DNA from: a virus
DNA: 40,102 nt
Reading direction: 5' to 3' (one strand)
IMG/VR virus record: IMGVR_UViG_3300018875_000069
Location: 1 to 40,102 of that record
Position numbers and translations under genes: made by a program
Notes under the pieces: generated by a model
What the model was told of the DNA's origin: nothing
Databases searched by the model: none
What the model saw: only the letters and a program-made list of their open reading frames with translations
Shown here: piece after piece, positions 29,398-40,102 of the stretch
Layout of the letters: each line of letters begins with the position of its first letter
Numbering within the stretch: position 1 is the stretch's first letter

Positions 29398-29588
29398 ATT
29401 GTTGGTTCCTCCCCCTTCCTGATCAGTACCATGAGATCCACGTCAAAGACCTCACCGCACCCCTTGCATGTTCGATGCAGTGCGTGATCCTGAAGCGCCA
29501 ATGAAAACGTACCCGCTCCACATGTCCGGCACCTTCCCGGTTGTTGATGGGGATTCAGATTCTCTTGTTTCCGCTTCTGCCGAGCCAT
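29394..29588 (-). CDS. Small zinc-ribbon protein
   Basis: 64 aa. Two CxxC knuckles, CRTCGAG (about 20-26) and CKGCGEVFD (about 41-49), form a classic zinc ribbon. The N-terminus is basic (RQKRKQENLNPHQQ). The start overlaps the stop of the DnaC-type gene (TGATG), so it is translated with it. Possible roles are nucleic-acid binding or an adaptor of the replication module; not identified more closely. Confidence 0.78.
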   Translation of the reverse strand: MARQKRKQENLNPHQQPGRCRTCGAGTFSLALQDHALHRTCKGCGEVFDVDLMVLIRKGEEPTI

Positions 29589-30391
29589 CAGCCGGCCGCT
29601 CCAACGATCCGGTAGTTGAGCTCTGACCCGCCCTTCATGATGACGCAGTAGTCGCGTGCCATCTCGTAGATCCGTGAGCCGGTTGCGGTATCGATCTCAC
29701 ACAACTCATCGATGTCCCGCTCCGAGGAGACGAGCATCGGCAGGTTGTTGAGATAGCGGTAGTTCACAATAGCGAAAAGTTGCTCAGTTTGAAATTCTGT
29801 AGGTATTTTGCGACCCTTGAATAGGTCATCGATGAAAAGCACCGGAACCTTCTGTAACTGGTGGATCCGAAAGTCTAAATTGTCCAGGTTGTCCTTCAGC
29901 TCATTGAACCCTTCCACCCAAGGGAAGTAGATCACGCCGACTCCCTGCCGCAGCAGGTTGTTCGCGACGGCCATGAGCAGGTGCGTCTTTCCGGACCCCG
30001 GCACGCCAAGAAGTGCGATGCTGTTTTGGCGCTGCTCTTTGATCTCGTGGAAGTTCTTGAAGTATGTACTTGCACAGGTGTATGCATCCACGATCGGTTG
30101 CGGCCGCCCCTGCGTTCGGAAATTCTTGAACCCGAGTTTCTGATAAGCCTCAGTGATCTGGCTCGAGCTGAACAAGCGCTCCACCCGCTTCAGCTCTCGG
30201 CACTCGCAGAACCGCCAGCGTTCGTACCCGTCCTCGTCCCGAACCAAGACCCCCTCTTCATCCCGGCACTTCTCGCAGTTATACGTCCGGCTTTGGTTTG
30301 GGCCGGTTGAGCCATCCTGTTTGACCGCCCGTGATCGAAGCCCCTCGAACATCTGGATTAGATCGTCCGGCTCGTTTATCACCTTGCGCAT
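29588..30391 (-). CDS. DnaC-like helicase loader (AAA+ ATPase)
   Basis: 267 aa. Walker A GVPGSGKT at 129-136, Walker B VPVLFIDD at about 182-189 and a sensor region (PMLVSSERDIDEL) are visible. The N-terminal part (about 36-66) carries a zinc-binding set (CEKCRD...CECRE) typical of phage DnaC/IstB-like loaders. It loads the replicative helicase at the phage origin with the DnaD-type initiator encoded upstream. GGAGG lies 7 bases before the ATG, and the first 113 bases overlap the initiator gene, unusually much for this genome. No helicase gene is present, so host DnaB/DnaC is presumably used. Confidence 0.93.
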   Translation of the reverse strand: MRKVINEPDDLIQMFEGLRSRAVKQDGSTGPNQSRTYNCEKCRDEEGVLVRDEDGYERWRFCECRELKRVERLFSSSQITEAYQKLGFKNFRTQGRPQPIVDAYTCASTYFKNFHEIKEQRQNSIALLGVPGSGKTHLLMAVANNLLRQGVGVIYFPWVEGFNELKDNLDNLDFRIHQLQKVPVLFIDDLFKGRKIPTEFQTEQLFAIVNYRYLNNLPMLVSSERDIDELCEIDTATGSRIYEMARDYCVIMKGGSELNYRIVGAAG

Positions 30392-31154
30392 GCTTTACCC
30401 TCCCCTCGTATTCCAGTGAGTAGGCTCTTACCTGTTGGAGCGTGCGTAGCTTGTTGTCTGCCCAGTCGAGCAGTATCTTGTTCGCATAGGCCCATCTGCG
30501 CGCTCCATTTTTCACCGCGATGCTGATGGCCTCCACGATGATCTCGTGGGGTTCATCAAAGTAGCCACCGTCCATCCAGTAACTGATATCCTCTCTGACG
30601 ATGGGAGCAAGCACGCCCATGTTCTGCTCATAAGTGATATATGGGTCTGGACGTTGCGCACGCGCGCCCTCATCCTCATCAACATCACTCTCTGATGTAG
30701 TCTCTGTAGTAATCTCTGGTATTGGTCTGCCCAAATTGGGCAAATCGTCTGCCCATTCTGGGCAATCCATCTGCTCATTTTGGGCAGACGATTGTGAATT
30801 TTTACAGTCGATCTGCCCATTTTGGGCAGTCGATAGCTCGTCCAACTTTGCATAGTCGATACTGTACCACTTGGTCTTATCGATCCGGCTCTGGTTGTAG
30901 TTGCCGGCGAGGATCACGCCCATCTGCTCCAACTTCTCGACGATGCGCCGGATGGTGTTCACGCCCCAAAACGGAAATTGCTCCTGCCACCCCTGGTAGG
31001 TGTTGTAGACCCAAGCCCGCCCGTCATAGTGGTGAGAACTTTTCTGCAACCAGTAGTGCAGCTGCTGGAGGAAGATGGCCTCGTTCAGGCCGATTATCTT
31101 CGCGAGTGAAGGTTGAATCACAAGCGGTTGATCGTCAAATAAAAGATTGCCCAT
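30279..31154 (-). CDS. Replication initiator, DnaD-domain protein
   Basis: 291 aa. Residues about 1-110 are a winged-helix initiator domain (LVIQPSLAKIIGLNEAIFLQ, QLHYWLQKSSHHYDGRAWVY, FWGVNTIRRIVEKLEQMGVI). A linker (about 110-160) rich in Q, N and D is encoded by the iteron repeats. The C-terminal part (about 175-260: ITYEQNMGVLAPIVREDISY, AISIAVKNGARRWAYANKIL, LDWADN) is a DnaD-like domain with the YxxxIL..W motif. It probably binds the iterons in its own gene and recruits the DnaC-like loader, as lambda O and SPP1/phi105-type initiators do (inference). Confidence 0.9.
   Translation of the reverse strand: MGNLLFDDQPLVIQPSLAKIIGLNEAIFLQQLHYWLQKSSHHYDGRAWVYNTYQGWQEQFPFWGVNTIRRIVEKLEQMGVILAGNYNQSRIDKTKWYSIDYAKLDELSTAQNGQIDCKNSQSSAQNEQMDCPEWADDLPNLGRPIPEITTETTSESDVDEDEGARAQRPDPYITYEQNMGVLAPIVREDISYWMDGGYFDEPHEIIVEAISIAVKNGARRWAYANKILLDWADNKLRTLQQVRAYSLEYEGRVKHAQGDKRAGRSNPDVRGASITGGQTGWLNRPKPKPDV
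30728..30828. repeat. Four phased palindromic iterons: candidate replication origin
   Basis: Four 15-bp copies of TGCCCA-NNN-TGGGCA (one has TGCTCA) start at 30728, 30750, 30772 and 30814. Spacing is 22, 22 and 42 bases, i.e. two helical turns and about four. An AT-rich gap (30790-30807, GATTGTGAATTTTTACAG) separates copies three and four. They lie within the linker-coding part of the initiator gene, the classic place for a phage origin (as in lambda O). Confidence 0.82.
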
Positions 31155-33660: not shown

Positions 33661-34065
33661 ATGTTAGGCAAACGTCTTGCTGAACTAAGAAAAGCTCGCA
33701 AACTGACGCAAGCAGACTTGTCTAAAATGCTGGGGATCCATAGAGGTACCTATGCAAATTATGAAGCAGGTAATCGTGAACCTGATAATGAAACCCTCCA
33801 AAAGCTTGCCGATTTTTTTGAGGTCTCAACGGATTGGTTGCTAGGTCGTACCAATGTATATCAGATTACTCCATCAAAGGAAAACTCGTTACTATATGAC
33901 ATAAGACCTCAGGATAAAAGGATTATTCATGAAAAGTCCGTAAGCCGCGCTTTCCTTGAACTGCCGGAGGATGTTACCGAGGAAGAAAAGGAGTTTTTGC
34001 GGGCACAATTGGATCTGCAACTGGAGATATTTCGGAAATTTAAGGAAAAGAAACGGGATAAATAG
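33661..34065 (+). CDS. CI-like repressor (XRE family)
   Basis: 134 aa from the ATG at 33661 with GGAGGTG upstream; the open frame before it lacks a ribosome site. Residues about 3-62 are an XRE helix-turn-helix (GKRLAELRKARKLTQADLSK, MLGIHRGTYANYEAGNREPD, then LADFFEVSTDWLLGRTN). The C-terminal part (about 100-134) is a charged helix (DVTEEEKEFLRAQLDLQLEI) resembling ICEBs1 ImmR-type and SinR-like repressors rather than LexA-type self-cleaving ones. With the ImmA metallopeptidase downstream (36459) this suggests ImmR/ImmA-type induction by repressor cleavage (inference). A terminator follows. Confidence 0.9.
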   Translation: MLGKRLAELRKARKLTQADLSKMLGIHRGTYANYEAGNREPDNETLQKLADFFEVSTDWLLGRTNVYQITPSKENSLLYDIRPQDKRIIHEKSVSRAFLELPEDVTEEEKEFLRAQLDLQLEIFRKFKEKKRDK

Positions 34066-34070
34066 GATCT

Positions 34071-34101
34071 AAACACACAGAAATTACTGTGTGTTTATTT
34101 T
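34071..34101 (+). terminator. Terminator after the repressor gene
   Basis: AAACACACAG, loop AAATTA, CTGTGTGTTT followed by ATTTT on the plus strand. It separates the repressor from the three-gene cassette. Confidence 0.88.
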
Positions 34102-34120
34102 AGCGATATTAATGCTAAAT
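34098..34120. promoter_or_regulatory. Inverted repeat and weak promoter before the three-gene cassette
   Basis: TTTAGC (34099-34104) and GCTAAA (34114-34119) are inverted repeats nine bases apart. TAAATA within the right arm could be a -10 with TTTATT (about 34094-34099) as a weak -35. The arms may be an operator controlling the cassette. Confidence 0.35.
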
Positions 34121-34140
34121 ATTTCAAGGAGAGCTGAAGA

Positions 34141-35328
34141 ATGGAAAAGTATTTTAAATTGAACAAACGCCTTATCGATTACTTAAACTTTGGTTCACTT
34201 CGAAACTTTCTTAGGCCCATTCGTTCCTTACAATCGTCTGGGCTCAAACATGAATTGATTGCTCGTATTGAAGAGGCAATTAACAATGGTAACTTACCCA
34301 AAGAGGCCTTCTATGATTACCTAGCTCATGAATTACGTTACGGACAAAATAGATCACTGTTCATAACTAGAATTAATTCCGCTTCATTACATAAAGTAAA
34401 GGATATCCTGAGGCTTAAGGCAGCCCTTCAAACAGCTGGTCTGAAAGATGAGGAATTCTCGGATTACGTTGATAGTTTTCCAACGTCTGAGGATCCAGAA
34501 TTAGTGCATCTTGAAATTGAGCGTGATGGTGCAGAAGTAAAAAAAATAATTCTTTGTTTTTCAAATTTAATAATGGTAAACAGAATTACTGAAGATGGAA
34601 TGGTCTCTGTCGAAGATACTGATTATGTTTGGATTACTATAGACATTGTTAATGAACAACTGCTAATTGCTGTAAGACCGCGAGGGAATTTAAACGACAC
34701 TTCTTCTCGAACGGTGGCTATTTATAATTATTTCACTCATTACTTGACTGATGTGTTCTCATTAAAATACTTTTCAAATGACGAAATGAAGTATACATTG
34801 TACAATATTTTCAAGGAGTTGACCACTAAAGCCGAAAGACCTTATGTAGAAAAGGTCGAACCATACTTGCCTCAGATTGAAGAATTTTGTCATCAAGTTG
34901 CTGCTGGTATAGGATTACCTTCCAGTGTGGCTCCTGTGAATCTTCCGTTTAGAATTAAAAGACTTCTTGAAAGGGCATTAATCCAAAATGATTTCTTTAA
35001 CTTCAAAGCCTATTCAAAAGGTAAAATCGGAACGGTTGAACGGTTCTTCTATGCCGATGAAACAGGAGCAAAAGTAAACGCAACTGCAAATGATGGTGAT
35101 GGAATTGAACTTAATGATATCTATTTTGACACGAGAGACACCATTGATGATCAAAGAATGTTTAAAAAGCTTTGGGTCAAATGGTTTTTACCGAACGAAA
35201 ATGAAATAGATACTAAATTAGAGGTAACCAGCAGTTATTTTTTGGTACACATTAATAGGTACCACTCGGGAGATGAGCAAAATTATGTACTTTCCACTAT
35301 TGAGGCGTTTAAGTCAGTATCAGATTGA
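34141..35328 (+). CDS. Cassette gene 1: 395-aa unknown protein
   Basis: 395 aa; AAGGAG upstream of the ATG. I do not recognise it. The first 75 residues are helical, with FGSLRNFLRPIRSLQSSGLK then HELIARIEEAINNGNLPKEA, which resembles a SAP-like DNA-binding or protein-contact element. About 120-240 is an alpha/beta domain (ELVHLEIERDGAEVKKIILC, YVWITIDIVNEQLLIAVRPR), and about 245-395 holds helices and a beta-rich end (WVKWFLPNENEIDTKLEVTS). No ATPase or nuclease motif is visible. AT-rich codon use sets it apart from the phage core. It opens a terminator-bounded operon with two overlapping genes. A role in immunity or phage exclusion is inference from place. Confidence 0.75.
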   Translation: MEKYFKLNKRLIDYLNFGSLRNFLRPIRSLQSSGLKHELIARIEEAINNGNLPKEAFYDYLAHELRYGQNRSLFITRINSASLHKVKDILRLKAALQTAGLKDEEFSDYVDSFPTSEDPELVHLEIERDGAEVKKIILCFSNLIMVNRITEDGMVSVEDTDYVWITIDIVNEQLLIAVRPRGNLNDTSSRTVAIYNYFTHYLTDVFSLKYFSNDEMKYTLYNIFKELTTKAERPYVEKVEPYLPQIEEFCHQVAAGIGLPSSVAPVNLPFRIKRLLERALIQNDFFNFKAYSKGKIGTVERFFYADETGAKVNATANDGDGIELNDIYFDTRDTIDDQRMFKKLWVKWFLPNENEIDTKLEVTSSYFLVHINRYHSGDEQNYVLSTIEAFKSVSD

Positions 35329-35824
35329 TTCCCTTGCGATTAATTTACTTGATTCATGGTTAGCCATGCAAAGAGATGCTGTACTTAACAACCTTTCACC
35401 ATTACGTTTTACTGGGCAAACAGACATAAATCATGATTTGGCAATCGACATGTTCTTATTGGCTGCAACACCTGAAATCGGGGTTCTAAGGACCAAGTAT
35501 AAAATCAACTGCCCTGTATGTGACACTCCAAACGGAGATTATTACTCCCTCAAAGATATACCGAATGAACAAATTTTTTGTAAACATTGCGAACATGGAT
35601 TTGTTCCTTCTACGAGACTCGACTATGTCGACTTAGTTTTCGAGAGGTGTTTAACTCCTACAAAACCCCTTATCGCTGAAACGGTGACAAGATATCATAA
35701 TCATAAAGGGGGCCACCCGGGAAAAGGGGATAGCCTTCGAGTAACAGATGTTATTTCGGGCCCCTCCAGTGCTCGAAGGCGCCTATTATTAGGACTCGAC
35801 GGTAGATATGAGGCAGCCCAATGA
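35285..35824 (+). CDS. Cassette gene 2: zinc-ribbon-containing unknown protein
   Basis: 179 aa from the ATG at 35285 (GGGAG 12 bases upstream); an ATG four codons earlier is the other option. It overlaps gene 1 by about 44 bases. The first part is helical (RRLSQYQIDSLAINLLDSWL). About 70-113 contains a zinc ribbon with CPVCDTPNGDYY and CKHCEHGF. The basic end (SSARRRLLLGLDGRYEAA) follows HNHKGGHPGKGDS. The ribbon suggests nucleic-acid binding or sensing. I do not recognise the family. Tight overlap with both neighbours means that the three proteins are made together. Confidence 0.75.
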   Translation: MYFPLLRRLSQYQIDSLAINLLDSWLAMQRDAVLNNLSPLRFTGQTDINHDLAIDMFLLAATPEIGVLRTKYKINCPVCDTPNGDYYSLKDIPNEQIFCKHCEHGFVPSTRLDYVDLVFERCLTPTKPLIAETVTRYHNHKGGHPGKGDSLRVTDVISGPSSARRRLLLGLDGRYEAAQ

Positions 35825-36387
35825 AAATTGATACTAGATATCTTATCGGCTTAATATTACTGACTATATCTTTAAGTTTAACATGCGCTTTTATCGTTGC
35901 TTTTGTTAAAGCAGATAAAGAATGGCTTGGGGCTTTAATTGGCTCACTTGGGAATATTATCGGCGGTGTTCTTGGGGGATATATCGCTTTTGCCGTTGCC
36001 AACTACCAATTGAATGAGACTAGACTTAATGATAATGTACGAGAAAAACAAGAAGCCAAAAACTTGGTTCTCGTACTAAAGGAGGAACTTCGTAACAACT
36101 CTATTGCGCTTGATGCTGTACTTCAGGATCAAGTAGTCGACCCGAAAATAATTAAGTTCAACTTAACAAGGGAAGCCTGGGGAGTATTCTCATCAAAAGT
36201 TGCTCACCTTCTTGAGGAAAATCTATTCATCACCTTAAATACTGTTTATAGAAAAGTACAAGTGTATGAATCTATGTCTATTGATGAGATCTCAAACGAA
36301 GTAGATCGTGAACAAGTGATCAGAATGAAGTCACAATTCGATGAATGTATTCGCAAATTGGACGATTTTAGGAAAAACTTAGAATGA
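35821..36387 (+). CDS. Cassette gene 3: two-TM membrane protein, relative of the 25381-26130 protein
   Basis: 188 aa; ATG overlaps the stop of gene 2 (ATGA), GAGG 7 bases upstream. TM1 is about 7-28 (YLIGLILLTISLSLTCAFIV) and TM2 about 36-60 (WLGALIGSLGNIIGGVLGGY). A charged helical cytoplasmic domain follows (REKQEAKNLVLVLKEELRNN; EAWGVFSSKVAHLLEENLFI; TVYRKVQVYESM). TM2 and the domain correspond to motifs in the membrane protein at 25381-26130. The architecture (membrane anchor plus coiled-coil domain) is like effectors of abortive-infection systems, but that is inference. A terminator follows at 36391-36417. Confidence 0.78.
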   Translation: MKIDTRYLIGLILLTISLSLTCAFIVAFVKADKEWLGALIGSLGNIIGGVLGGYIAFAVANYQLNETRLNDNVREKQEAKNLVLVLKEELRNNSIALDAVLQDQVVDPKIIKFNLTREAWGVFSSKVAHLLEENLFITLNTVYRKVQVYESMSIDEISNEVDREQVIRMKSQFDECIRKLDDFRKNLE

Positions 36388-36390
36388 AAT

Positions 36391-36417
36391 AATGCTCACT
36401 AAGAGCATTTCTTTTTT
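36391..36417 (+). terminator. Terminator after the three-gene cassette
   Basis: AATGCTC, loop ACTAA, GAGCATT followed by TCTTTTTT on the plus strand, 3 bases after the stop codon of the membrane protein. Confidence 0.9.
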
Positions 36418-36458
36418 CGTCTATACAGGAACATACGTTTGTGTTTTGGGGGGTATTT

Positions 36459-37085
36459 ATGTTTGATCTTTACCAAATCACTCCACTTGAAGAGTGGATT
36501 GAAACCCGGTACAAGGCTATTGGCATTCATTCCTCTGCTGACCTCGATATTGACGACATCGCACTGTCTTTCGGCATCAAAATATTTTACCTTCCATCGG
36601 CCAAAGAAGAAGCAATTTGGGATGATGAAGATGCTGCTATATTCCTTAATTCAAACAAATCGTTAGAGGAAATCCGTGAGTCTTTTTTTCATGAATTAAG
36701 CCATCCACTTCTTCATTCTGGTGATCAATTGATGCTCCCATCCATCTTTCGAGAGCTACAGGAAACCCAAGCAAGGCAGTTTCAACTATATGCAGCATTG
36801 CCATACTTTATGATTAAAGAGTTAAAACTCCCACCGCATAAGAACGAAGCCATTGGGCTGTTGGCCCAACGATTCAAGGTTACTCCCATGCTCGCCAAGC
36901 GACGGTTAGAGCAAATTGAGGCACGCATCAACAAAGTTATATTAGATCAGGAGCTTGTTTTGCATTTACAGAGCAAATACAGGAAAGCAGATCCGAAGAA
37001 ATGGACAGATGAAACGAAACGTATCTTGCATCAACTGAATCGGCAGTTAATTTCAAAAGGTGAGAAAGGAATCGTGATTCCCTAA
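36459..37085 (+). CDS. immA: ImmA/IrrE-family metallopeptidase
   Basis: 208 aa from the ATG at 36459 with GGGGGG upstream. The zinc motif HELSH lies at about residues 78-82 (SFFHELSHPLLHSG), with a downstream glutamate in QETQARQFQLYAALP (about 103-117) as the family's third ligand. The N-terminal part (PLEEWIETRYKAIGIHSSAD) and the C-terminal helices (LAKRRLEQIEARIN) agree with phage and ICE ImmA proteins. ImmA cleaves the XRE repressor (ImmR-type) to allow induction, so it probably acts on the repressor at 33661. It overlaps the next gene (TAATG). Confidence 0.88.
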   Translation: MFDLYQITPLEEWIETRYKAIGIHSSADLDIDDIALSFGIKIFYLPSAKEEAIWDDEDAAIFLNSNKSLEEIRESFFHELSHPLLHSGDQLMLPSIFRELQETQARQFQLYAALPYFMIKELKLPPHKNEAIGLLAQRFKVTPMLAKRRLEQIEARINKVILDQELVLHLQSKYRKADPKKWTDETKRILHQLNRQLISKGEKGIVIP

Positions 37086-37441
37086 TGGCAGAAATCAAAG
37101 TGTATTACGATTATCACGAGGGACAGCTTGTGCCACTCTGGTTCGTTTTTATATTCAAGCAAGGTACAATTGATTGGGACAAAAGTAGAATCAACTTCCG
37201 GATAGATGCACCTTTTCAGCGGATGCATACGGAAGACTCCGATCAGTCTGCCATCGGCGTCTCAATACTTGATTCTGACTTGACAGTAATTCCATCAAAA
37301 CCCGGACATTTTCGCGTAAACCTGGAGGCAGTACGACAACGAATTGAAACTGAATATGGAATTGATGTCCAAGAGGTTGAGCAACTTGTCATCCAGGTGT
37401 CCGATATTGAAGAAATATTGCAAATGAATCCATATCGCTAA
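37085..37441 (+). CDS. Unknown protein coupled to ImmA
   Basis: 118 aa. The ATG overlaps the ImmA stop codon (TAATG). The sequence KVYYDYHEGQLVPLWFVFIF, KQGTIDWDKSRINFRIDAPF, NLEAVRQRIETEYGIDVQEV is a small alpha/beta protein. It ends ...VIQVSDIEEILQMNPYR. No family recognised. Coupling to ImmA suggests a regulator or partner of repressor cleavage, but this is inference from gene order. Confidence 0.7.
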   Translation: MAEIKVYYDYHEGQLVPLWFVFIFKQGTIDWDKSRINFRIDAPFQRMHTEDSDQSAIGVSILDSDLTVIPSKPGHFRVNLEAVRQRIETEYGIDVQEVEQLVIQVSDIEEILQMNPYR

Positions 37442-37458
37442 TATCTTCCGAAACAAGT

Positions 37459-37464
37459 TATAAT
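37459..37464 (+). promoter_or_regulatory. -10 element before the integrase gene
   Basis: TATAAT on the plus strand, 17 bases before the integrase ATG; no clear -35 is present (GCTAAT at the 17-base distance). The ribosome site GGGAGGTGATCAC follows at once. The integrase may thus be expressed independently of the ImmA unit. Confidence 0.45.
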
Positions 37465-37481
37465 CATGGGGAGGTGATCAC

Positions 37482-39044
37482 ATGAACCGCCCTACCCATT
37501 TGGACGTATTTGTTTACCTTCGCAAGAGCCGGAAGGACGTTGAAGAGGAACGTAAAGCCCTTGAAAACAATACTCCCTTTGACACACTGGCCAAGCATCG
37601 CCGTGAATTGCTTGAGTTGATTCGTCGGGAAGGCCATAGTGTCATTGATATCTTTGAGGAAGTGGTCTCGGGTGAGTACATATCAGAACGTCCGGAGATG
37701 CAGGAACTGTTGCGAAGAGTGGATGATGGCGAAATTGAAGCAGTCGTAGTAATGGATCTGGATCGCCTGGGGCGGGGAGACATGGTAGACGCGGGAACCA
37801 TATTCCGGACATTCCGTGACTCCGAGACCTTGATCGTCACTCCTACAGAAGTGATCGACTGTACGGCCGAAGGTGCCGAGCTCTTGTTTGGTTTCAAATC
37901 TATGATCGCTCGTGAAGAACTCAAGCTGATCAACAAACGCCTCCAGGGGGGCCGGCGCCGATCAGCGAAAGACGGTAAATCGATCACTCGAAAACCACCC
38001 TACGGATACTCCCGGGACGAGAACCTCAAACTCTTCCCTCATCCAGAAGAGGCGGCCATTGTCAGGAAAATTTTCGAAATGATTGCCAGTGGCCACGGAC
38101 GGCAAGCCGTAGTAAAGCACCTGGACTCCCTCGGTATTAAGCCGCCTGAGGGAGGGTTATGGGAGCAGTCTACCATCTCAAGCATCGTCAAAAATGAAGT
38201 GTATCTTGGCCATATCATCTGGGGGAAGGAAAAGCACCTCAAACGGAATGGCAAGAGAGTTCGCAAGAAAGTCCCGCCAGAGCAATGGATTCGCCACGAA
38301 AACGCTCACGAAGCCATCGTCCGCCAAGAACTCTTTGATGACGCGAATGCTGCGCTCCGCGAAAGATGGAGGGCCCCTACTAAAGCTGGTGTAGGGCTTT
38401 CGAACCCTTTGGCTGGCATAATCAAGTGCGGCATTTGCGAAAGAGCGTTGTATTTGTCCAGAACTGCAGATCGGCCAAACCCACAGCTGCGCTGCATTAA
38501 TCCAAGGTGTCAGCCTATCCAAAAGGGCGTTCTGCTCCCCCTGGCTGAGCAGCGGATCCTTCTCGCACTTGACTTACTGGCTCAGAAGTCATCGGTCTCC
38601 GAAAAGGAACTGACCCAATCGCTCGATGACGATACAGACGACGTTATAGAAGCCAAGCAGAAACAGATTGCTCAACTCCAGCAGACAATTGAAGAATTGC
38701 ATTCAATGCGGGAAACCGCATTTGAAATGCTCGAGAAAAAGGTCTACAGTGAAGAAATATTCCTGCAGCGACACAAGAGCATTTCCGATAAATTGAAAGA
38801 AGTGGAATTGGCAATCTCCCGCCTTCAGGGCGAGATCGAAGAGGATCTGAGGAAAAAGAAGTATCAAAAAACCATTGTACCCAAGGTCCGTGCCCTGCTG
38901 GAAAACTACAACAGTCTTCCGACTGCTGAACAAAAAAATCACCTCCTCAAAACGATCATTGAGAAGGCGCTGTTCATCCGTAAAAAAGAATGGACAAAGA
39001 AAGACCACTTTGAAATCGAAATCATTCCGCGGTTCCCGGTATAA
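37482..39044 (+). CDS. Large serine integrase
   Basis: 520 aa. The catalytic serine is in VYLRKSRKD (S16), and the resolvase core continues with SGEYISERPEMQELLRRVDD, AVVVMDLDRLGRGDMVDAG and the E helix EELKLINKRLQGGRRRSAKD. The recombinase domain (KPPYGYSRDENLKLF...VYLGHIIWGKEK) and a zinc-ribbon (CGICERALYLSRT...CINPRC) follow, then a coiled coil (about 385-470: KQKQIAQLQQTIEELHSMRE). Domain order is that of phiC31/SPbeta-type large serine integrases. It lies beside attR and integrates and, with a directionality factor, excises the element. The gene ends 34 bases before the attR core. Confidence 0.96.
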   Translation: MNRPTHLDVFVYLRKSRKDVEEERKALENNTPFDTLAKHRRELLELIRREGHSVIDIFEEVVSGEYISERPEMQELLRRVDDGEIEAVVVMDLDRLGRGDMVDAGTIFRTFRDSETLIVTPTEVIDCTAEGAELLFGFKSMIAREELKLINKRLQGGRRRSAKDGKSITRKPPYGYSRDENLKLFPHPEEAAIVRKIFEMIASGHGRQAVVKHLDSLGIKPPEGGLWEQSTISSIVKNEVYLGHIIWGKEKHLKRNGKRVRKKVPPEQWIRHENAHEAIVRQELFDDANAALRERWRAPTKAGVGLSNPLAGIIKCGICERALYLSRTADRPNPQLRCINPRCQPIQKGVLLPLAEQRILLALDLLAQKSSVSEKELTQSLDDDTDDVIEAKQKQIAQLQQTIEELHSMRETAFEMLEKKVYSEEIFLQRHKSISDKLKEVELAISRLQGEIEEDLRKKKYQKTIVPKVRALLENYNSLPTAEQKNHLLKTIIEKALFIRKKEWTKKDHFEIEIIPRFPV

Positions 39045-39058
39045 ACGGGGGCCGCTTT
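39029..39058 (+). terminator. Terminator of the integrase gene
   Basis: GCGGTTCCCG, loop GTATAAA with the stop codon TAA, CGGGGGCCGC followed by TTTGT on the plus strand. Ten pairs with two G-U. It stops transcription just before attR. Confidence 0.7.
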
Positions 39059-39060
39059 GT

Positions 39061-39094
39061 GTATATATCATCATGAAGTGTACTGATTGACTTC
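39061..39094. other. attR core with phage arm
   Basis: The core TGTACTGATTGACTTC at 39079-39094 repeats the attL core. The phage arm GTATATATCAT (39061-39071) mirrors ATGATATATAC at attL. The reconstructed attP is GTATATATCAT-NANGAAGT-... about a centre at the TG dinucleotide (39084-39085), with 18 of 24 positions symmetrical. Confidence 0.93.
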
Positions 39095-40102
39095 CCCATA
39101 GCCAAAAATGTTGCTGCGCTGCATCAACTCCTGGACCAGTTTCACGCAGCGTTCGTTGTCGGAGGTGAGATTATCCCCGTCAGAGAAATGGAAGGGATAG
39201 ATATTGTACTGGGCCGGCGGGTAGCGGGCGTCGATAATCTCGAGCGCCTTCCTGTAGGCGGAGGAGCAAATCGTGCCGCCGCTCTCCCCTTTGGAGAAAA
39301 AGGCTTCCTCCGTCACTTCCTTGGCATCCGTATGATGGGCGATAAAGACGATCTCTACCTTTTCATACTTGGTTCGCAGGAAGCGCAGCATCCAGAAAAA
39401 GAAGCTGCGGGCGATGTACTTTTCAAAGACGCCCATCGAACCGGAGGTATCCATCATGGCGATGATCACGGCGTTGGAGTGCGGCTTGACGATCTCTTCC
39501 CAGGTTTTGAAGCGCAGGTCTTCGTCGGTAATCCCCAGTTCCATGTCACTGTAGCCGGCCAGGGCATTGCGGCGGAGTGCGGCCAGCAGCGTGCGCCGCT
39601 TGTCGATGTTGCCCATTAGCCCTTTTTTGCGGATATCATTGAAGCGGATCTCTTCGACGATGATGTTCTGCTCATCTTTCGGCTTCAGATTGGGCAGCTC
39701 CAGCTCGGCGAAGAGCATCGCTTCCAGCTCTTCCACCGTGATCTCCGCTTCGTAGTAATCCGCACCAGGTTGGTCGCCTGCGCCCTGCCCTTTGCCCGGT
39801 CCCTGGGCGGGGTCTCCGTCGCGGGCGATCACGTCGCCGACCTTGCTGTTTCCCTTGCCCTGGCCGCCGTGCTGCCCCTTCTGGAAGTTATAGCGAAACC
39901 GGTATTCATCCAACGAACGGATTGGGATTTTTACCACTTCCCGGCCATTGGACATGATGATGCTCTCTTCGCTGACCAGATCGGGCAGGTTTTTCTTGAT
40001 CGCCTCTTTGACCTTTTCCTGATGCCGCGTCTGGTCTTGATGCCCTTTGCGATGCAGCGACCAGTCTTCCTTGGAGACAATAAATGAGGTCGAATCGTCC
40101 AT
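39071..40102 (-). CDS. yhbH: YhbH (DUF444) sporulation protein, 5' part truncated by prophage
   Basis: 343 codons to a phage-borne stop. The first 341 codons are yhbH; the last two (TS) and TGA come from the phage arm. The N-terminal part ([20 protein letters not shown]) is the typical family start; the ATG is at the window edge, so a slightly longer start cannot be excluded. The glycine-rich linker (about 78-112) precedes a VWA-like domain with the metal-binding DTSGSMG at about 218-224 and FSDGDN at about 306-311. The C-terminal piece (starting NRHSTLMS) is at 1-126. YhbH/YeaH proteins occur with the PrkA kinase and SpoVR and are sporulation-associated in Bacillus (known from the literature). 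In this lysogen only a C-terminally truncated protein can be made until excision. Confidence 0.93.

What the first reader, a model, noticed from the sequence alone, without database searches (positions are those of the whole stretch)
30728..30828. Phased palindromic iterons inside the initiator gene
Four TGCCCA-N3-TGGGCA copies at intervals of 22, 22 and 42 bases are too regular for coding constraint and lie in the low-complexity linker of the DnaD-type initiator. The AT-rich break between copies three and four could be where the DNA opens. This matches the design of lambda oriO but with palindromic repeats.
Basis: partly seen in the sequence, partly recalled or inferred. Interest (0 to 1): 0.6.

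Follow-up and report, generated by a model that had tools for sequence, protein, structure and literature searches.

The report
Phage replication origin inside initiator gene
The palindromes are a lambda-style replication origin lying inside the gene of the phage's own replication initiator; comparison with about 200 relatives shows that two amino acids of the initiator predict the DNA letters of its binding sites, and that a second, almost unchanging DNA element (CAGAGA-N-TACTA repeats), probably where the strands open, follows them.

Summary
In detail: four 6-3-6 palindromes (three exact, one with one mismatch) at +22, +22, +42, found nowhere else in the window, lying in three reading frames, and not reproduced by 20,000 synonymous recodings. 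The origin reading is well supported, with corrections. (1) Lambda iterons are also 6-3-6 palindromes with the same CA-N3-(T/C)G core, so 'but with palindromic repeats' is no difference. (2) The 42-bp gap is a diverged iteron-sized slot; the least stable DNA of the gene lies after the last iteron (window 30694-30723), as in lambda. New: of 216 unique relatives, 150 carry at least three such iterons behind the N-terminal winged helix, 22-23 bp apart. Their half-site bases are predicted by residues 66 and 69 of the recognition helix in leave-clade-out tests (82-91% for the two inner variable bases; nearest relative 38-50%). Right after the iterons comes a near-invariant DNA element, CAGAGA-N-TACTACAGAGA, fixed at synonymous codons (Glu GAG 98/98). 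A scan with the bare DNA pattern returned 120 viral loci, all in initiator-like genes or fragments, several with other iterons. No description of the element or the code was found in the library. Binding and melting remain untested.

The parts
30279..31154 (-). Initiator gene, 291 aa: N-terminal winged helix (residues 1-116), disordered linker (117-164) that holds most of the origin, C-terminal DnaB_2/DnaD domain (174-245)
30921..30962 (-). Codons of the recognition helix (residues 65-78); N66 = 30957-30959, R69 = 30948-30950, the two residues that predict the iteron half-site
30814..30828 (.). Iteron 1 (in gene direction) TGCCCAAAATGGGCA
30793..30806 (.). Diverged palindromic slot TGTAAAAATTCACA inside the 42-bp gap (probably a lost or altered iteron)
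30772..30786 (.). Iteron 2 TGCCCAAAATGAGCA (one mismatch)
30750..30764 (.). Iteron 3 TGCCCAGAATGGGCA
30728..30742 (.). Iteron 4 TGCCCAATTTGGGCA
30685..30727 (-). Conserved post-iteron element GACCAATACCAGAGATTACTACAGAGACTACATCAGAG..., 12-bp repeat; candidate unwinding / helicase-loading site; includes the least stable 30 bp of the gene (30694-30723)
29588..30391 (-). Overlapping downstream gene: DnaC-like AAA+ helicase loader, 267 aa

Best explanation
This is the replication origin of a temperate tailed phage, built like ori-lambda inside the gene of its own initiator. Dimers of the initiator bind each palindrome with their N-terminal winged helix. Residues N66 and R69, on the first turn of the recognition helix, read half-site bases 3-4 (CC) and 1-2 (TG); the CA-N3-TG centre is common to the family. 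The phased array wraps or strains the DNA, and the strands open just beyond iteron 4, in the conserved CAGAGA-N-TACTA repeat. The DnaB_2 domain and the neighbouring DnaC-like loader then put the host replicative helicase on the opened strands. Shown by computation: the array, DNA-level selection, residue-to-base covariation, the conserved element, its low stability, the partner genes. Inferred: dimer binding, melting at the element, helicase loading.
For: Synonymous null and three reading frames. Iterons behind the same domain in 150 of 216 unique relatives, commonest spacings 22 and 23 bp, 148 of 150 arrays spanning at least two frames. Covariation concentrated on residue 66 (bases h3, h4: z 14.9, 13.3) and residue 69 (h1, h2: z 17.5, 10.1) in 75 representatives below 80% identity; the best column apart from these two stays below z 6. 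Leave-clade-out prediction h3 0.82-0.86 and h4 0.89-0.91, against 0.38-0.50 and 0.40-0.48 from the nearest relative (n = 88); loci fetched later by DNA pattern mostly agree. AlphaFold2 puts 66 and 69 on the recognition helix H65-78 and leaves the linker disordered; the best PDB match is DnaD. Lambda iterons share the layout (PMC5043065). Post-iteron element: codons fixed at GAG 98/98, ACA or TCA 97/98, GAG 95/98; least stable 30 bp of the gene; the weaker side in 75/75. DnaC-like loader next door.
Against: No binding, melting or replication assay exists for this phage. GC skew does not switch at 30.7 kb. 66 of 216 relatives show no regular CA-core array with the finder used; some have other repeats, some probably none. 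The link between residue and base is partly inherited: on supported branches only 1-6 independent pairs per class are available, nearly all in the expected sense, too few for significance. The element also encodes a fixed peptide (xE[INTS]TTE), so a share of its conservation may be protein-level.
Confidence: 0.83

Rival explanations
1. The palindromes are operators through which the initiator (or another phage dimer) represses or paces transcription of the replication operon; the origin lies elsewhere.
For: Winged-helix dimers often act on such palindromes (general knowledge); transcription through ori-lambda is regulatory as well (PMC5043065).
Against: The sites lie about 330 bp inside the gene, not at a promoter; arrays of 3-8 phased copies; followed in most relatives by a weak, conserved element; the same layout is a proven origin in lambda, and P22 has an annotated rep_origin at the same place of its initiator gene; SPP1 oriL lies in its initiator gene with repeats plus a DUE (PMC6316719).
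Confidence: 0.06
2. One reading: the duplex opens in the AT-rich break between copies three and four.
For: The 42-bp gap is AT-rich (z 1.7 for low stability within the gene).
Against: The gap is two 21-bp periods holding a diverged palindrome in register; many relatives have no gap; the least stable 30 bp are after iteron 4 and that side is the weaker in 75/75 representatives; in lambda the AT-rich region follows the iterons (PMC5043065).
Confidence: 0.05
3. The post-iteron CAGAGA element is not an unwinding site but an RNA-level signal (transcription pausing or priming) or a recombination boundary that lets phages swap initiator domains.
For: It is on the sense strand of the gene in every case examined; it sits between interchangeable N- and C-terminal modules; lambdoid phages are known for module exchange (general knowledge).
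Against: First repeat 10-11 nt after the last iteron in 46/75 representatives, whatever the iteron's reading frame; low duplex stability; lambda and P22 have a look-alike ACAAAAGACA repeat in the same position.
Confidence: 0.2
4. The repeats are a by-product of a repetitive, low-complexity peptide linker (AQNEQ, TTE repeats).
For: The linker is predicted disordered and peptide repeats are visible.
Against: Copies in three reading frames encode different peptides; synonymous null; codon fixation in the element.
Confidence: 0.01

Closest known systems
Bacteriophage lambda O protein / ori-lambda (PF04492 Phage_rep_O)
   Same: Origin inside the initiator gene between DNA-binding and C-terminal domains; four palindromic iterons, 6-3-6, CCCTCA-AAA-CGAGGG, spacing 20/24/23; weak-duplex region directly after the last iteron; helicase loader gene next downstream
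   Different: Other half-site; the N-terminal domain does not match PF04492 and the C-terminal domain is DnaB_2/DnaD instead of the lambda O one; the loader is a DnaC-like AAA+ protein, not P; post-iteron element is CAGAGA-N-TACTA repeats instead of ACAAAAGACAC...
mEp460-type 'primosomal protein I' (L300, P0004)
   Same: N-terminal domain and CA-core iterons of the window's kind, same post-iteron element
   Different: C-terminal domain is the lambda O one: a natural hybrid linking the two families
SPP1 gp38/oriL, TP901-1 Rep and 80alpha gp20 (Gram-positive phage in-gene origins)
   Same: Phages of Firmicutes with origin repeats inside the initiator gene (SPP1 from PMC6316719; 80alpha as annotated; TP901-1 from memory)
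   Different: Other repeats; no CAGAGA element in the TP901-1, 80alpha or A118 initiator genes; SPP1 sequence not held
Bacillus subtilis DnaD and its DnaD recognition element (TnnT, PMC10201434)
   Same: Fold and C-terminal domain; a single-strand element beside initiator boxes
   Different: TnnT density in the phage element is no higher than base composition gives; the element is shared by initiators without a DnaD domain

Membership tests
Lambda-type in-gene origin (ori-lambda design) | Iterons lie within the initiator coding sequence, between DNA-binding and C-terminal domains | tested here: met
Lambda-type in-gene origin (ori-lambda design) | Each iteron is an inverted repeat able to take a dimer | tested here: met
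   23 of 24 palindromic pairs; lambda layout the same
Lambda-type in-gene origin (ori-lambda design) | Weak-duplex region next to the iterons on the C-terminal-coding side | tested here: met
Lambda-type in-gene origin (ori-lambda design) | Initiator binds the iterons through its N-terminal domain | tested here: inconclusive
   residue-base covariation and prediction support it; binding itself not testable here
Lambda-type in-gene origin (ori-lambda design) | Functions as an origin in cis | not testable with these tools
   needs an experiment
Lambda O protein family (PF04492) | Phage_rep_O N-terminal domain | tested here: not met
   Pfam scan finds only DnaB_2; lambda O itself hits PF04492
Lambda O protein family (PF04492) | Lambda O type C-terminal domain | tested here: not met
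   DnaB_2 instead; mEp460 shares the lambda O C-terminal families
DnaD/DnaB_2-type phage initiator (phrog_6493) | Winged-helix N-terminus plus DnaB_2 C-terminus | tested here: met
   phrog_6493 E 5.8e-61, PF07261 E 2.1e-16, fold
Iteron plasmid origins (RepA/RepE type) | Direct, non-palindromic repeats bound by initiator monomers | tested here: not met
   Repeats are palindromic
DnaD recognition element (TnnT pairs) | TnnT motifs enriched on one strand of the unwinding region | tested here: not met
   1.75 against 1.37 and 8.79 against 8.40 in shuffles

The most novel reading that the evidence does not exclude
Phages of Firmicutes and Proteobacteria share a two-part in-gene origin: an exchangeable specificity part (winged helix plus iterons, readable through a two-residue code) and a near-invariant CAGAGA-N-TACTA element that is recognised as a sequence, probably as a melted strand, by something common to all hosts, such as the replicative helicase, primase or SSB. 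It would be a general helicase-loading sequence of this large class of phage origins.
Probability: 0.35. Interest if true: 0.85.

Novelty: new variant of a known kind. Interest (0 to 1): 0.64.

Why it matters
In-gene origins were worked out in lambda and a few other phages. Here a single comparison gives a tested, predictive rule for which initiator reads which iteron, so origin compatibility between phages, prophages and satellites could be predicted and tested with one- or two-residue swaps. The conserved post-iteron element makes an open question, where and how such origins open and take on the helicase, directly testable with point mutations that need not change the protein.

Tried and rejected
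DnaD recognition element / DnaA-trio reading of the element: an 8-nt word shared with one variant (ATTACTTC), but TnnT is not enriched over shuffles; kept only as a lead. GC skew as origin marker: no switch at the site. Rfam: nothing in the window. The element in the lambda, P22, TP901-1, 80alpha and A118 initiator genes: best 6-7 mismatches of 17, so it is not universal; lambda and P22 have an A-rich look-alike, judged by eye only. Paper search for the element sequence: twelve unrelated hits. The HK97 stretch fetched was the wrong part of that genome; the SPP1 record is not held. Independent-pair tests on the tree are too few on supported branches for significance. PADLOC search of the low-GC genes gave only weak hits for the IrrE-like peptidase.

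Full report
1. Observation. The four palindromes are at the stated places and spacings: 30728, 30750, 30772 (one mismatch, TGCTCA) and 30814, and nowhere else in the record with 0-1 mismatches. The record is a 40,102-bp IMG/VR virus contig. The sites lie in a minus-strand gene of 291 codons. In the gene's direction the order is iteron 1 (nt 327), 2 (369), 3 (391), 4 (413).

2. More than chance or coding. Because 22 is not a multiple of three, the copies fall in frames 2, 2, 0 and 1 and encode unlike peptides (TAQNGQ, SAQNEQ, CPEWAD, LPNLGR). Recoding the gene 20,000 times with synonymous codons never came near the observed fit (1 mismatch in 48 fixed positions; mean 11.6, minimum 5). Selection acts on the DNA.

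3. The gene and its neighbour. The protein matches phrog_6493 (DnaD-like helicase loader, E 5.8e-61) and, in its C-terminal part, PF07261 DnaB_2. The next gene overlaps it and is a DnaC-like AAA+ loader. The AlphaFold2 model has a confident winged helix (residues 1-116, recognition helix 65-78, wing 81-99), a disordered linker (117-164) and a confident C-terminal domain; Foldseek's best PDB match is DnaD.

4. Relatives. Protein searches in viral contigs and GTDB genomes gave 294 usable loci, 216 unique. A palindrome finder with no preset core found half-sites ending in CA in most of them; 150 genes have at least three in a regular array directly behind the winged helix. The commonest spacings are 22 and 23 bp; 148 of the 150 arrays span two or three reading frames. 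The common pattern is NNNNCA-N3-TGNNNN with variable outer bases. (The 97-98% CA is conditional on that filter.)

5. The code. In 75 representatives below 80% identity, half-site bases 3 and 4 covary with residue 66 (z 14.9 and 13.3) and bases 1 and 2 with residue 69 (z 17.5 and 10.1); columns other than these two stay below 6. N66 goes with CC (the window: N66, TGCCCA), S with TT (mostly with R69) or GT (with K69), R with GC or GA, K with GA or GT, D with TG or GG, small hydrophobic residues or Pro with AT or CT; R69 with TG, K69 with GG, AG or GT, I69 with TA. Predicting each representative from others no more than 55-80% identical gives 82-86% (base 3) and 89-91% (base 4), against 38-50% and 40-48% for the nearest relative and 45% and 60% for the commonest base. 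Loci fetched later by DNA pattern alone follow the code in most cases, with misses such as P66/K69 (L389) and one R66/K69 (L403). Both residues sit on the first turn of the modelled recognition helix. This is the strongest evidence that the initiator binds these sites. Caution: on a tree built without the recognition columns only 1-6 independent pairs per class lie on supported branches; nearly all go the expected way, but they are too few for significance.

6. The element after the iterons. In most relatives, usually 10-11 nt after the last iteron, begins a 12-bp repeat, ACCAATACC-AGAGAYTACTAC-AGAGAYTAC... (67 of 101 AGAGA spacings are 12, 18 are 11). In the window it is 30685-30727. 158 of 216 genes have at most 3 mismatches to CAGAGANTACTACAGAGA, against none of 216 shuffled. 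It follows the iteron in different frames (RPIPEITTE in frame 1, TNTRDYTEITTE in frame 2), and where the E-x-T-T-E peptide is present the codons are fixed: Glu GAG 98/98 (36% elsewhere), the second T/S codon ACA or TCA 97/98, the last Glu GAG 95/98. In 769 bacterial genomes of two classes the 22-mer occurs 13 times and its reversed control never; 12 of 13 lie in initiator-like genes, the thirteenth in what looks like a decayed one.

7. Where it opens. The least stable 30 bp of the gene are 30694-30723, inside this element; the 42-bp break is weaker than average but less so (z 2.4 against 1.7). In 75 of 75 representatives the stretch after the last iteron is weaker than any among the iterons. 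The break itself is two 21-bp periods with a diverged palindrome in the middle slot. In lambda the AT-rich region that opens also follows the iterons (PMC5043065; PMC7466680).

8. Comparison. Lambda iterons CCCTCA-AAA-CGAGGG have the same layout and core, so palindromic iterons do not set this phage apart. The protein is not a PF04492 member, so it works like lambda O without belonging to that family by its domains. Phage mEp460 joins the window's kind of N-terminal domain, iterons and element to a lambda O type C-terminus. P22 has ACAAAAGACAATAT repeats at its annotated origin and 80alpha has TACTAATAAT repeats, so other phages use other words there. The TnnT element of B. subtilis DnaD (PMC10201434) was considered; enrichment was not found.

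9. Verdict. An ordinary kind of origin, correctly spotted, with one wrong contrast and a probably wrong opening site; the surroundings hold two less expected things: a predictive recognition code and a near-invariant DNA element. The searched library (open-access PubMed Central only) gave no description of either; subscription papers were not searched.

Noticed in passing
30685-30727 (-) and L303-L443: Near-invariant CAGAGA-N-TACTACAGAGA DNA element in phage initiator genes of Bacilli and Proteobacteria, also beside unrelated iterons
   Followed up: yes
30793-30806: Diverged but still palindromic slot in register with the iterons (TGTAAAAATTCACA; L005 TGTGAAAAATCACA)
   Followed up: partly
L325, L402, L307, L341: Initiators with quite different iterons followed by the same element; their residue-to-iteron code was not worked out
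   Followed up: no
37482-40102: Large serine recombinase (PF07508/PF00239) next to a DUF444 gene that runs off the window; the latter looks like a host gene at the prophage boundary
   Followed up: partly
34000-37500: GC drops to 35-40% with two ORFs without PHROG match and an IrrE-like peptidase (PF06114; weak RmrA/capP PADLOC hits) at 36441-37085: a cargo or regulatory insert
   Followed up: partly
L423 nt 1926-1960 (P22): ACAAAAGACAATAT tandem after GGTAAA iterons at the annotated origin, resembling the lambda AT-rich region
   Followed up: partly
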